Of a DNA stretch of 37,356 nt, positions 1,089 to 17,494 are shown in pieces. Where the stretch lies: contig NZ_CP073240.1 in NCBI RefSeq assembly GCF_009670965.2, forward strand, positions 1 to 37,356. Direction: 5' to 3'. Both the position numbers and the translations under genes were made by a program. The notes under the pieces were generated by a model, which was not told where the DNA came from, made no database searches, and saw only the letters and a program-made list of their open reading frames with translations. Source of the DNA: Riemerella anatipestifer (GTDB taxonomy: Bacteria; Bacteroidota; Bacteroidia; Flavobacteriales; Weeksellaceae). Position 1 is the stretch's first letter. Every line of letters begins with the position of its first letter.

Positions 1089-1098
1089 GTTGTACGAC
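1089..1098 (+). other. 5' boundary of the aadS cassette, possible attI side
   Basis: GTTGTACGAC is the exact reverse complement of GTCGTACAAC at 1990-1999, so this is the R' box of the first recognisable cassette. The DNA to its left (955-1088) does not form an attC-like right half and contains no gene. That makes it either an attI-type primary site or a deletion junction. No integrase gene is visible nearby. Confidence 0.5.
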
Positions 1099-1121
1099 AT
1101 AGTAAAACCGAACCAAACAAA

Positions 1122-1985
1122 ATGAAAGTCAGAGAAGAAAAGTTAAGAACAATTATAGAATGGTCGGAGAAAAACGAAGATGTAAGAGTTCTTCTTCTGA
1201 CAAGTTCACTTGTAAATCCTTTAGCACTTGTTGACGAATTTAGTGATTTAGACATTGAATTTGTTTTTGAGGATAATACAAATTACATTTCAGACAAAAG
1301 CTGGACGCTTAAATTCGGAAATCCAATTGCTATGATTGAAGAAGACGAAAGTTGTTTTAACCATAAACACGCAATGAAAATGCTACTTTATGAAGACGGT
1401 GTGAAAGTAGATTTTAAACTTTACAGCAAATCAAAATTTATAAAGGAAACGCAAGAGAAAGAATTACCAGAAGATTGGGATATTGGTTATAAAATTTTAA
1501 TTGATAAAGATGGTATTACAAAGCAAATGCTGAAACCAACTTATCAAATTTCCATTATCAAAAAACCGTCTGAAAAAGAGTTTCAAAATCTAATAAACGA
1601 TTTTTGGTGGGACACAACTTACGTGGCAAAGTGTCTTGTGAGAGATGAAATATTCTATGCGAAATTTATGTCGGAAACCGTTATTCGCACAGAATATTTA
1701 ATTCCTTTAATTGAATGGCACATTGCAAGTGAACACAATTGGAACATAACGACCAATAAATATGGACGACTTTTCAAAAAGTATCTTAACCAGGAAATGT
1801 GGGCTAAAACAGAACAAACATTTTCAGGGAGCGATATAAAGGAAAATTGGACTGCTCTATTTTCAATGACTGATTTAGTTTCAGAAATAGGAACTGAATT
1901 GTCAAAAAAATTAGAGTACAAATACCCGGATAAATTAGAAAATGACATACGAAAATATTTAGCTGGACTAAAACCCAAAACATAA
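1122..1985 (+). CDS. aadS: aminoglycoside 6-adenylyltransferase, AadS (streptomycin)
   Basis: This 287-residue protein is a nucleotidyltransferase of the ANT(6) group that adenylylates streptomycin in the cytoplasm. The nucleotidyltransferase motif SDLDIEF (residues 41-47) carries the metal-binding Asp42 and Asp44, preceded by the SSLVNP loop. WWDTTYVAK and the C-terminal helical region match ANT(6) enzymes, and size and sequence agree with AadS as known from Bacteroides and flavobacteria. ATG 1122 is 32 bp inside the cassette (boundary at 1089/1090), an arrangement typical of a promoterless integron cassette. An attC-like site begins 5 bp after the stop. Confidence 0.88.
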   Translation: MKVREEKLRTIIEWSEKNEDVRVLLLTSSLVNPLALVDEFSDLDIEFVFEDNTNYISDKSWTLKFGNPIAMIEEDESCFNHKHAMKMLLYEDGVKVDFKLYSKSKFIKETQEKELPEDWDIGYKILIDKDGITKQMLKPTYQISIIKKPSEKEFQNLINDFWWDTTYVAKCLVRDEIFYAKFMSETVIRTEYLIPLIEWHIASEHNWNITTNKYGRLFKKYLNQEMWAKTEQTFSGSDIKENWTALFSMTDLVSEIGTELSKKLEYKYPDKLENDIRKYLAGLKPKT

Positions 1986-1989
1986 CTAC

Positions 1990-2124
1990 GTCGTACAACA
2001 TCGTATTGGCAATAGGCGGGCTGAACGGCTTCGTATCAACGGAAGTGCAAAATTCAACTTCTGTTCTTCGATTAAAGTTCAGTGCTAAAAATCCCGCCCA
2101 TCGCCAATACGCGGCACGTTGCAC
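1990..2124 (+). repeat. attC-like site 1 (end of aadS cassette)
   Basis: R'' GTCGTACAAC (1990-1999) pairs with the cassette start at 1089. The left arm CGTATTGGCAATAGGCGGG pairs with the right arm CCCGCCCATCGCCAATACG, and the site ends in GTTGCAC (from 2118), which opens the next cassette. The spacer holds the motif AGTGCTAAAA that recurs in other sites. Confidence 0.82.
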
Positions 2125-2594
2125 GCTACACTACTGAAAATCACTCTGTTGAAATAAAGTTAAATCTTAGCGTTATAAAAGAAACTGAATCCAAACCGAA
2201 CGAGGAGTCTGTTGAAAGGTTTGAATTCATTTTCTATTTTTTGTATTACGGAATAGAATTGACTTTTATCCGCAGTGAATTTTCATTAGCGTAGCGTACA
2301 ACGCAACAGACTCCGAATTGATTTTACCAACTTAGTATGAAAAGCTGAATTGAAAATAGGGAAGAGTTGAATTTGAAAAACTGGAATTGAATTTAGAAAA
2401 CTGAAATTTAGCCTGTGCGAATATATCATATTGTGAATACCAAATAGAAACTGAAACGAAAGTCCAGCGTGCAACACGGGTTTTGCAAAAAAGCGGGAGC
2501 GGTTTCATTTGGACATAATGAAATTTTTATTACCTTTGTGTAGTTGGGGTAATGTTAGTGGTTTTTTAGTCCGCTTCTTCGCAAAGCCCCACCA
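2119..2594 (+). other. short cassette without a convincing gene
   Basis: The cassette starts GTTGCACGCT (2118) and ends AGCGTGCAAC (2466-2475), an exact complement. Open frames inside it are short, begin in the flanking palindromes and look like no known family, so I call no gene. A second R''-like box, GTAGCGTACAAC (2290-2301), matches the start at 11 of 12 positions and is followed by CAACAGACTCC (2304-2314), the reverse complement of 2204-2214. This may be the remnant of an older attC inside the cassette. Confidence 0.55.
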
Positions 2595-2601
2595 TTATGT
2601 G
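2466..2601 (+). repeat. attC-like site 2
   Basis: R'' is AGCGTGCAAC. The left arm GGGTTTTGCAAAAAAGCGGG pairs imperfectly with the right arm CCGCTTCTTCGCAAAGCCCC. The right R box reads ATTATGTGAA (2594-2603), whereas every other site has GTT here, so the G next to the crossover point is changed to A. Confidence 0.78.
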
Positions 2602-16371: not shown

Positions 16372-16400
16372 AAATATATACATTTCAAAAAAAACAGCCA

Positions 16401-16536
16401 GCAGGTAACAAGGATTTTGCAAGAGAGCGGGTTAAGTGCTTCGTATGAAACTTTTTGCTAAATTTGTAGTTCGGTTCTTCGATAGAGCGTTTGTGCATAA
16501 AATCCGCTCCCTCGCAAAGCCCCGAACCGTTGGTGG
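16401..16536 (+). repeat. attC-like site 11
   Basis: R'' GCAGGTAAC exactly complements the cassette start GTTACCTGC (15386). The arms AAGGATTTTGCAAGAGAGCGGG and CCGCTCCCTCGCAAAGCCCC are almost the same as in site 5, pointing to a common cassette lineage. Ends GTTGGTGG (16529-16536). Confidence 0.84.
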
Positions 16537-16557
16537 CAAGGCTAAAAGACACAGCAA

Positions 16558-17346
16558 ATGGACATCAGTAAAGACGTAAAAAATCAACTTGACAAATATT
16601 TTGGAAATTATACTACCACACAAATTTCAGGTGGTTCAACAAATGCTGAATTGTTCAGGGTTACGACAGATGAATCAAAGAGTTTTATTCTCAAAAAACA
16701 AATTTATAGTAACCATAATGTAAACCTCAAATACGATTATCAAAATTATTTATGGCTTGACGGAAAAATTCCAGTTCCTAAGATTATTTTTTATGAACAA
16801 TTAAGCGACTTTGAATTGTTATGTATGACGGAACTGCAAGGAAAAACTCTTGAATATTATTTTGATAAAATAGAAACTGAAGAAATTATTAAGCAATATG
16901 CAATATCATTGAAAAAACTTCATTCTTTGAAAATTGACAATACTGCGTTGGTTCAACACCTTGACTTGAAAATTTCAAAAGCAAGATTTAATTTAGATAG
17001 TGGGTTAATTGATTTTACAGACTTACAACCCGAAAATCAAACTTACAGCCCCGAAGAACTATTTGTGAAATTATTAAGCATAAAGCCATCAGACTATGAA
17101 TTAGTGTTTACACACGGAGATTACTGTTTTGACAACTTAATTTTTGACAATCATAACTTAAGTGGTTTTATAGACATTGGCAATGGAGGTATAACAGATA
17201 AATATCAAGATATTGCACTTGCTGTTAGAAACATACGAGATAATTTTAGACCAGAAATGGTTGACATATTTTACAAGGTATATGGACTTGATAAGCCAAA
17301 CAAAAATAAAATAGAGTTTTATATATTATTAGACGAGTTCTTTTGA
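16558..17346 (+). CDS. APH(3')-like aminoglycoside phosphotransferase
   Basis: This 262-residue kinase carries the APH(3') signature: FTHGDYCFDNLIF (catalytic Asp and metal-binding Asn), GFIDIGNGGITDKYQDIALAVRNI and the C-terminal EFYILLDEFF. The N-lobe has SGGSTNAELFRV and the ATP-site lysine in FILKKQIY. Members phosphorylate the 3'-OH of kanamycin and neomycin in the cytoplasm. I do not recognise the exact allele. The ATG is 28 bp from the cassette boundary. Confidence 0.82.
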   Translation: MDISKDVKNQLDKYFGNYTTTQISGGSTNAELFRVTTDESKSFILKKQIYSNHNVNLKYDYQNYLWLDGKIPVPKIIFYEQLSDFELLCMTELQGKTLEYYFDKIETEEIIKQYAISLKKLHSLKIDNTALVQHLDLKISKARFNLDSGLIDFTDLQPENQTYSPEELFVKLLSIKPSDYELVFTHGDYCFDNLIFDNHNLSGFIDIGNGGITDKYQDIALAVRNIRDNFRPEMVDIFYKVYGLDKPNKNKIEFYILLDEFF

Positions 17347-17357
17347 AAGAAGCCCAG

Positions 17358-17494
17358 CCACCAACATCGTATTGGCAATAGTGGGGCTGATAGTTATAAA
17401 TTCAACATTTGTGCTTCTATCGGGCATTAGTGCAAATGTTGGGCTGACGTTTTTCAAATGCCCCACCATCGCCAATACGTAACCGTTATGCGGC
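17358..17494 (+). repeat. attC-like site 12 (end of APH(3')-like cassette)
   Basis: R'' CCACCAAC exactly complements the cassette start GTTGGTGG (16529). Arms CGTATTGGCAATAGTGGGGC and GCCCCACCATCGCCAATACG pair with two mismatches. Ends GTTATGCGGC (17485-17494), which opens the erm(F) segment. Confidence 0.85.

What the first reader, a model, noticed from the sequence alone, without database searches (positions are those of the whole stretch)
1089..17494. Integron-like cassette array of resistance genes in a Bacteroidetes, with no integrase in view
Twelve palindromic sites separate eleven or more units. In nine of eleven complete units the first 8-10 bases (GTT plus a unit-specific tail) are the exact reverse complement of the unit's R'' box: aadS GTTGTACGAC/GTCGTACAAC, tet(X) GTTATGTGCC/GGCACATAAC, efflux GTTAGTGGC/GCCACTAAC, lnu GTTGGCGG/CCGCCAAC, toxin-antitoxin GTTGTGCGT/ACGCACAAC, esterase GTTAGCGGG/CCCGCTAAC, APH GTTACCTGC/GCAGGTAAC, APH(3') GTTGGTGG/CCACCAAC. 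At each junction the right box belongs to the next unit. This is what G/TT crossover of circular cassettes produces. The boxes break the classical GTTRRRY rule (for example GTTACCTG, GTTGTGCG), so the integrase is probably of an undescribed or little-known type.
Basis: partly seen in the sequence, partly recalled or inferred. Interest (0 to 1): 0.95.

Follow-up and report, generated by a model that had tools for sequence, protein, structure and literature searches.

The report
Bacteroidota integrons without the classical integrase
Twelve gene units here, most of them for antibiotic resistance, each end in a palindromic DNA site of a kind found in nearly half of the Bacteroidota genomes sampled, and they were likely strung together by an integron-like gene-capture system whose recombinase lacks a part thought essential in known integrons.

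Summary
Twelve attC-like sites bound twelve units at 1089-17485; in 11 of 12 the unit's first bases are the exact reverse complement of its R'' box (0 of 20,000 permutations as good). In other genomes' arrays 39 of 55 units match fully. A covariance model of nine sites finds such sites in 185 of 395 Bacteroidota genomes. The missing integrase was found in relatives: a family of tyrosine recombinases facing the arrays' 5' end (41 of 42 with a site). Three nearly identical integrase/attI regions are followed by three different cassettes, diverging at G|TT. These recombinases lack the IntI-specific insert and fall outside the IntI clade; no IntI over the cut-off was found in 150 genomes (control). 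The sites lack regular extrahelical bases and carry an invariant G.T wobble in 124 of 126. A published experiment inserted 27 bp + CDS + 140 bp of aph(3')-IVb: 956 bp, my predicted cassette length. The 'xerD' beside tet(X3) in Acinetobacter is a relative. That this integrase is the enzyme, and single-strand use, are inferred; none was located in Riemerella.

The parts
1090..2118 (+). cassette 1: aadS (streptomycin adenylyltransferase family); site 1990-2125
   Evidence: start box/R'' 10 of 10; site 115.7 bits; PF04439
2119..2594 (+). cassette 2: unit with no recognised gene; site 2466-2601, right crossover reads ATT instead of GTT
2595..4228 (+). cassette 3: ere(D)-like erythromycin esterase, gene on - strand; site 4038-4235 (long loop)
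   Evidence: PF05139; annotation
4229..5555 (+). cassette 4: tet(X); site 5426-5562
5556..9974 (+). cassette 5: four-gene efflux operon on - strand (MarR-, TolC-, HlyD-, ABC-2-like); site 9784-9981
   Evidence: PF12698; MarR, TolC and HlyD names by eye
9975..11025 (+). cassette 6: lincosamide nucleotidyltransferase-like; site 10897-11032
   Evidence: PF21418
11026..11943 (+). cassette 7: RelE-like toxin and HTH antitoxin; site 11816-11950
   Evidence: PF05973, HTH by eye
11944..12953 (+). cassette 8: class D beta-lactamase (OXA-347-like); site 12822-12960; start box does not match its R''
12954..14280 (+). cassette 9: second tet(X); site 14151-14287
14281..15386 (+). cassette 10: estT-like macrolide esterase; site 15259-15393
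15387..16529 (+). cassette 11: APH-family phosphotransferase; site 16400-16536
   Evidence: PF01636
16530..17485 (+). cassette 12: 262-aa APH(3')-type gene (length and context as published aph(3')-IVb); site 17356-17492; 956 bp
17486..18378 (+). cassette 13, incomplete: erm(F) on - strand, its attC end missing, IS4351 follows
   Evidence: same start box in L001, L002, L035, L156 with the exact 9-base R'' 951-1166 bp on
36000..37313 (+). third tet(X) with its own attC-like site 37177-37313, beside floR/ISCR2-like genes (these by eye)

Best explanation
The stretch 1089-17485 is an array of twelve cassettes, each ending in a palindromic attC-like site, that was likely built by a family of tyrosine recombinases which in related genomes stand at the 5' end of such arrays and lack the IntI-specific insert. 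Predicted mechanism: the recombinase binds the bottom strand of a cassette's site folded into a hairpin, cuts the R' box between G and TT, and joins the cassette to the attI site beside its own gene or to another cassette's site. Shown: the sites, their pairing signature, the own-box complementarity, the G|TT breakpoints, one integrase/attI region followed by three different cassettes, the integrase position and polarity, the missing insert. Inferred: that this recombinase is the enzyme, and that a folded single strand is its substrate. The window's array is a cluster without its integrase, next to plasmid-type genes.
For: Sites. Own-box rule: window 11 of 12; other genomes 39 of 55 in full, mean 5.2 of 6 against 2.9. 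Integrase: 66 hits in 59 of 150 genomes; 42 have a site in the fetched stretch and 41 of these face the array's 5' end; leaving out five low-scoring 328-aa copies of G048 it is 38 of 38, and 170 of 170 sites (rows). In 80 named loci 21 have sites, and 53 of 53 sites face the integrase (counted). Genomes with integrase and with sites coincide (53 both, 6, 38, 53 neither; p 1e-9). attI: L035, L036, L048. No TIGR02249 match at E 1e-70 in 150 genomes; control rings in 6 of 6. Published: a PCR fragment of aph(3')-IVb inserted without flanking homology, 27 bp + CDS + 140 bp = 956 bp, as predicted (PMC13148043, section 11). One stem pair is G.T in 124 of 126 sites; it would be A.C if the top strand folded.
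Against: No recombination was assayed. No integrase was located in Riemerella, where the experiment was done (none of these is a search of a named Riemerella genome). 38 of 91 genomes with sites have no integrase hit at E 1e-60, and 5 of 24 integrases without a site are not near a contig end. Strand evidence is thin: bottom-strand energy is lower in only 9 of 12 window sites; the excess of G.T over A.C in stems (150 to 74) comes wholly from the one invariant pair, without it 70 to 74; 56 of 126 sites hold a C.A mismatch at another position. Separation from IntI has FastTree support of 0.80-0.95 only. Alignment A5 was fitted to the model.
Confidence: 0.87

Rival explanations
1. A classical IntI elsewhere in the cell or in past hosts moves these cassettes in trans; the array-end recombinases are bystanders.
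For: Clusters of attC without integrase are common and can be used in trans (PMC9668308, passages); integrons or intI are reported from Bacteroidota or the Bacteroidetes/Chlorobi group (PMC8618304, PMC2426708, passages).
Against: 0 of 150 genomes have IntI over the cut-off, 91 of them with sites (control 6 of 6; some genomes are incomplete). Sites lack regular extrahelical bases and break GTTRRRY. Array-end position of the other recombinase.
Confidence: 0.05
2. The host's XerC/XerD (or another Xer) recombines the sites, somewhat as in pdif modules.
Against: Arrays sit beside one recombinase clade that is distinct from the four XerC/D-type controls; the sites are about 135-198 bp palindromes with own-box complementarity, while pdif sites are 28 bp (PMC7530245, passages).
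Confidence: 0.05
3. The units were put together by IS elements (IS4351, ISCR2, IS91) and homologous recombination; the palindromes are terminators or other repeats.
For: IS4351, ISCR2-like and IS91 elements stand around these genes.
Against: No transposase ORF is seen within 1089-17485 (by eye); homology breaks at G|TT (39 of 106 ends, 0.5 expected); unit-specific boxes; the published insertion had no flanking homology.
Confidence: 0.02

Closest known systems
Integrons with IntI (class 1 and chromosomal integrons)
   Same: Cassettes with palindromic attC, R''/R' boxes, G|TT junction, attI beside a tyrosine recombinase gene, G after AAC of the R' box (130 of 130), asymmetric unpaired spacer
   Different: Recombinase lacks the IntI-specific insert (64-79 residues between two motifs in array loci, 105-109 in ten IntI); no regular extrahelical bases; invariant G.T wobble; boxes rarely fit GTTRRRY; 29 of 42 integrases read toward the array
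XerA / Xer recombinases
   Different: Beside cassette arrays with palindromic sites; many carry an extra N-terminal part of about 70-90 residues
'xerD'-tet(X3)-res-ISCR2 region of Acinetobacter
   Same: Its recombinase is 44% identical (which also hits MK134375, the p34AB named in PMC7530245), falls in the array clade and reads toward tet(X3), whose cassette start GTTATGTGCC follows
   Different: Annotated CDS is 666 bp only, the attC behind tet(X3) is cut and its R'' fits the start box only partly; described in print as an ISCR2 module (PMC7530245, passages)
IS91-linked tyrosine recombinases of Myroides plasmids
   Same: Related recombinase; contact with the same sites
   Different: Outside the array clade; the element lies in the R'' box

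Membership tests
Integron with IntI | IntI-specific additional domain (I2) in the integrase | tested here: not met
   Motif spacing 64-79 residues in array loci where both motifs were found, 105-109 in 10 IntI; TIGR02249 matched in two pieces
Integron with IntI | Score over the curated cut-off of TIGR02249 (265 bits) | tested here: not met
   140-215 bits in 8 array integrases; true IntI 363-488
Integron with IntI | attC-type sites: imperfect palindromes with R and L boxes | tested here: met
Integron with IntI | Two or three extrahelical bases in the attC stem (PMC2727003) | tested here: not met
   unpaired insert columns of the modelled stem are filled in at most 14 of 130 sites
   6 of 125
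Integron with IntI | attI beside the integrase, cassettes inserted at G|TT | tested here: met
   L035, L036, L048 diverge at G|TT; tet(X) cassette start in 8 places
Integron with IntI | Integrase catalyses attI x attC recombination on the folded bottom strand | not testable with these tools
   no assay; indirect: published insertion
XerA-type recombinase (NF040815) | Score over the curated cut-off of 220 bits | tested here: inconclusive
   4 of 8 array integrases over it (221-231), 4 under (164-215)
XerA-type recombinase (NF040815) | Chromosome dimer resolution at dif | not tested
   -
pdif (XerC/XerD) modules | 28-bp pdif sites in inverse orientation around the module | not tested
   no pdif search was run; the sites seen are 135-198 bp and all in one orientation

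The most novel reading that the evidence does not exclude
A second, phylum-wide integron lineage that captures cassettes through folded single-stranded sites without the I2 helix and without extrahelical bases, using an invariant G.T wobble instead; it is the native home of tet(X), estT, ere(D), aadS and erm(F), and the 'xerD' beside tet(X3) in Acinetobacter is a relic of its integrase and attI. (Lowered from 0.72 on checking: the general wobble bias of the stems turned out to rest on one pair.)
Probability: 0.68. Interest if true: 0.96.

Novelty: new variant of a known kind. Interest (0 to 1): 0.93.

Why it matters
The I2 domain is described as necessary for cassette capture, as giving single-strand activity and as not found in any other protein (PMC7790495, passages); the insertion is called essential for integron function, though not fully conserved in the integron-like subgroup (PMC8138268, passages). 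The usual survey tool asks for that domain (PMC9668308, passages), so it would likely report these arrays as integrase-less or not at all. If right, integron-type recombination exists without I2, and how it works and evolved becomes testable. It also offers a mechanism for homology-free insertion in Riemerella, which the authors left open while noting attC-like folding, and for how tet(X), erm(F) and others were gathered before ISCR2-type elements carried some into Acinetobacter; a 2020 study reports no hits on direct alignment of tet(X) surroundings of Flavobacteriaceae with those of Acinetobacter and Enterobacteriaceae, apart from a 397-bp fragment (PMC7494873, passages).

Tried and rejected
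Own assembly: not held. R. anatipestifer chromosome: the toxin-antitoxin cassette gave 32 hits in 395 genomes of the order, none that I could name; the best 120 relatives listed for each of two integrases show no Riemerella name, most have no name at all. Rfam: no family matches 900-18500, E up to 1. A first MAFFT alignment of 11 sites on the top strand aligned the 3' ends badly; replaced by nine bottom-strand sites (left out: ere and efflux for their long loops, tetX2 as a near copy of tetX1). E. coli estT-tet(X4): no attC between the genes, so not claimed as an intact cassette pair. The tet(X)-estT junction of L035 is no palindrome by eye. TIGR02249 was searched at E 1e-70 only and the 14 built-in control genomes do not ring, hence the separate control. 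Model R1 in 15 genomes outside the phylum: 1 of 15 at E 0.0017, possibly a classical attC. C. oryzae plasmid L197 has the integrase, no site found. In one search I left out seven weak opposite-strand shadows of stronger hits (five, two); a site near two integrases counts twice there. In one search the window, L001-L003, L035, L036 and L048 were left out on purpose. A general bias of stem wobbles for the bottom strand was considered and dropped. The extra N-terminal part was not folded alone.

Novelty searches in the PMC library (listings with capped rows, titles and abstract starts seen); none lists a paper on a Bacteroidota integron whose integrase lacks the IntI domain. Most subscription papers and all preprints are not held.
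Full report
WHAT IS THERE. The window holds aadS, a gene-less unit, ere(D)-like, tet(X), a four-gene efflux operon, lnu-like, a RelE/HTH pair, an OXA enzyme, a second tet(X), estT-like, an APH and a 262-aa APH(3')-type gene, each followed by an imperfect palindrome. 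Relatives of many of these genes are so named in plasmid records. To the right stand erm(F), IS4351, plasmid-type genes, floR- and ISCR2-like genes and a third tet(X) (partly by eye). Of 18.4-31.4 kb, only IS4351 matches an R. anatipestifer plasmid and 8% matches a Bergeyella porcorum plasmid at 94%; host likely Riemerella or a near relative, the record is not named to me.

CHECK AGAINST CHANCE. In 11 of 12 units all six bases after GTT are the reverse complement of the unit's own R'' box (67 of 72 bases; 0 of 20,000 random pairings reach it, the best reaches 55). The exception is the OXA unit: its R'' expects GTTAGTGGC, which starts the OXA cassette of Myroides albus, while the window and R. 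anatipestifer L001 start with GTTGTGCGTC; this unit is probably a hybrid. In arrays of other genomes 39 of 55 units match 6 of 6 (mean 5.2; control with the preceding site's R'' 2.9; 0 of 10,000 permutations); 16 of 55 match less.

THE SITE. Nine bottom-strand sites align over 141 columns; 23 pairs are 94.2% standard, 16 pairs with changes on both sides, against at most 47.5% when slid. The model R1 finds sites in 91 of 150 near genomes (E 0.01) and in 185 of 395 genomes drawn evenly from the phylum, 103 of 170 genera (E 0.001; eight candidates per genome were scored). In 15 genomes outside the phylum with IntI or related recombinases there is one weak match. Over 126 distinct sites one pair is G.T in 124; folded from the top strand it would be an A.C mismatch. 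Beyond that pair there is no general wobble bias: in 82 sites from other genomes G.T to A.C is 150 to 74 with it and 70 to 74 without it, and one position is C.A in 56 of 126. No modelled stem position is regularly bulged (at most 14 of 130), whereas two or three extrahelical bases are described as common to all known attC substrates, and attC x attC recombination by IntI1 or VchIntIA failed without them (PMC2727003, abstract and passages). The base after AAC of the R' box is G in 130 of 130, as in most classical sites. Only 6 of 125 R' boxes fit GTTRRRY, but base 4 is a purine in 125 of 125.

THE INTEGRASE. In the nearest held genome, G001, two arrays begin beside the same 279-aa tyrosine recombinase. 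With seven such proteins as a profile (A3), 59 of the same 150 genomes have 66 hits at E 1e-60. I fetched all 66 with up to about 9.4 kb on each side: 42 have a site in the stretch; in 41 of these the array's 5' end faces the integrase, median distance to the nearest site about 1.0 kb; 174 of 184 sites face it, and the ten that do not lie by low-scoring 328-aa copies in G048. Of 24 without a site, 18 have a contig end within 3 kb ahead and one just behind; five have not. 29 of 42 integrases read toward the array, unlike class 1 (recalled), and 13 away. In a separate scan of named genomes 21 of 80 loci hold sites and all 53 sites face the integrase, which reads toward the array in 18 of 21; by their titles 20 of the 21 are Bacteroidota, among them Flavobacterium aciduliphilum and Algoriphagus ornithinivorans. 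By genome: 53 have both, 6 integrase only, 38 sites only, 53 neither.

attI AND CASSETTE MOVEMENT. L035, L036 (both G001) and L048 (G061) carry nearly the same integrase and about 170 bp beside it; similarity ends at ...AACAATG|TT and three different cassettes follow, tet(X), lnu and a third, two with exactly the boxes of the window's tet(X) and lnu. The start of the tet(X) cassette occurs in eight places in the fetched DNA, behind six different upstream sequences, each joined at G|TT; three of the places are attI-like ends beside an integrase (L035, L195, L198), five are attC. Of 106 ends of homology between the window and other loci 39 lie within 3 bp of a predicted boundary (0.5 expected; 22 of 66 distinct positions). 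Orders differ between plasmids: for example OXA-347, erm(F), ere(D), MYO-1, aadS in Myroides albus.

INDEPENDENT EXPERIMENT. PMC13148043 (section 11 read) reports that a PCR fragment of aph(3')-IVb entered the chromosome of R. anatipestifer ATCC 11845 by natural transformation without flanking homology, at a locus with relE and an HTH gene, consistently with 27 bp before and 140 bp after the 262-aa gene; the authors compare the 3' part to attC and leave the mechanism open. 27 + 789 + 140 = 956 bp, the length of my cassette 16530-17485 (28 + 789 + 139); the one-base shift is within the GTT shared by both ends. I did not compare the gene letter by letter.

WIDER REACH. In Acinetobacter plasmids a recombinase 44% identical to the array integrase reads toward tet(X3) or tet(X5); 171 bp on, the tet(X) cassette starts with the window's box. 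Behind tet(X3) what looks by eye like half an attC remains, with an R'' that fits the start box only in part; the model gives it 13 bits. In print this gene is 'xerD' in ISCR2-xerD-tet(X)-res-ISCR2 of p34AB (PMC7530245, passages). erm(F) is likely a cassette as well: the same start box and an exact R'' 951-1166 bp on in four loci.

VERDICT. Observation confirmed and interpretation supported: an integrase-less array of an integron-type system of the Bacteroidota. It meets the structural tests of an integron (sites, own boxes, attI, junctions, shuffling) but fails the defining protein test and two site tests of IntI integrons. Which enzyme acts, and on which strand, remains to be assayed.

Noticed in passing
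L002 7559-7700, 16215-16330, 18400-18690; L003 1696-1830, 5530-5640, 7755-8012, 8885-8990, 11099-11355, 14423-14700: IS91 transposase plus tyrosine recombinase pairs in Myroides plasmids end at the R'' box of these sites (...TTTAGTTCAA|C) in 6 of 6 copies; the three left ends shown start after GTCGTACAA. An element that likely targets attC.
   Followed up: partly
L004 5100-5300; L035 13240-13330: tet(X4) of an E. coli plasmid and one tet(X) of G001 lose homology inside the R'' box at ...CACATAA|; 11 of 106 HSP ends lie within 1 base of AA|C of an R'' box.
   Followed up: partly
window 17486-18378: erm(F) looks like a cassette of the same system whose attC end is missing before IS4351.
   Followed up: yes
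window 2119-2594: A cassette without a recognisable gene, with A instead of G at its right crossover base.
   Followed up: no
window 940-1091; L001 18706-19477: A dihydrofolate-reductase-like unit left of aadS ends at the same G|TT in both, followed by different DNA, with no attC found: perhaps a secondary insertion point.
   Followed up: partly
window 28651-29785: Reverse-transcriptase-like ORF with an HTH ORF beside it in the plasmid part, by eye from the translation; perhaps retron-like.
   Followed up: no
L195, 130 bp before 5910: The Acinetobacter attI-like end carries a palindrome TATACGCCATTTGGCGTATA before G|TT; G001's attI has repeats of TTTTACGAAA (by eye).
   Followed up: no
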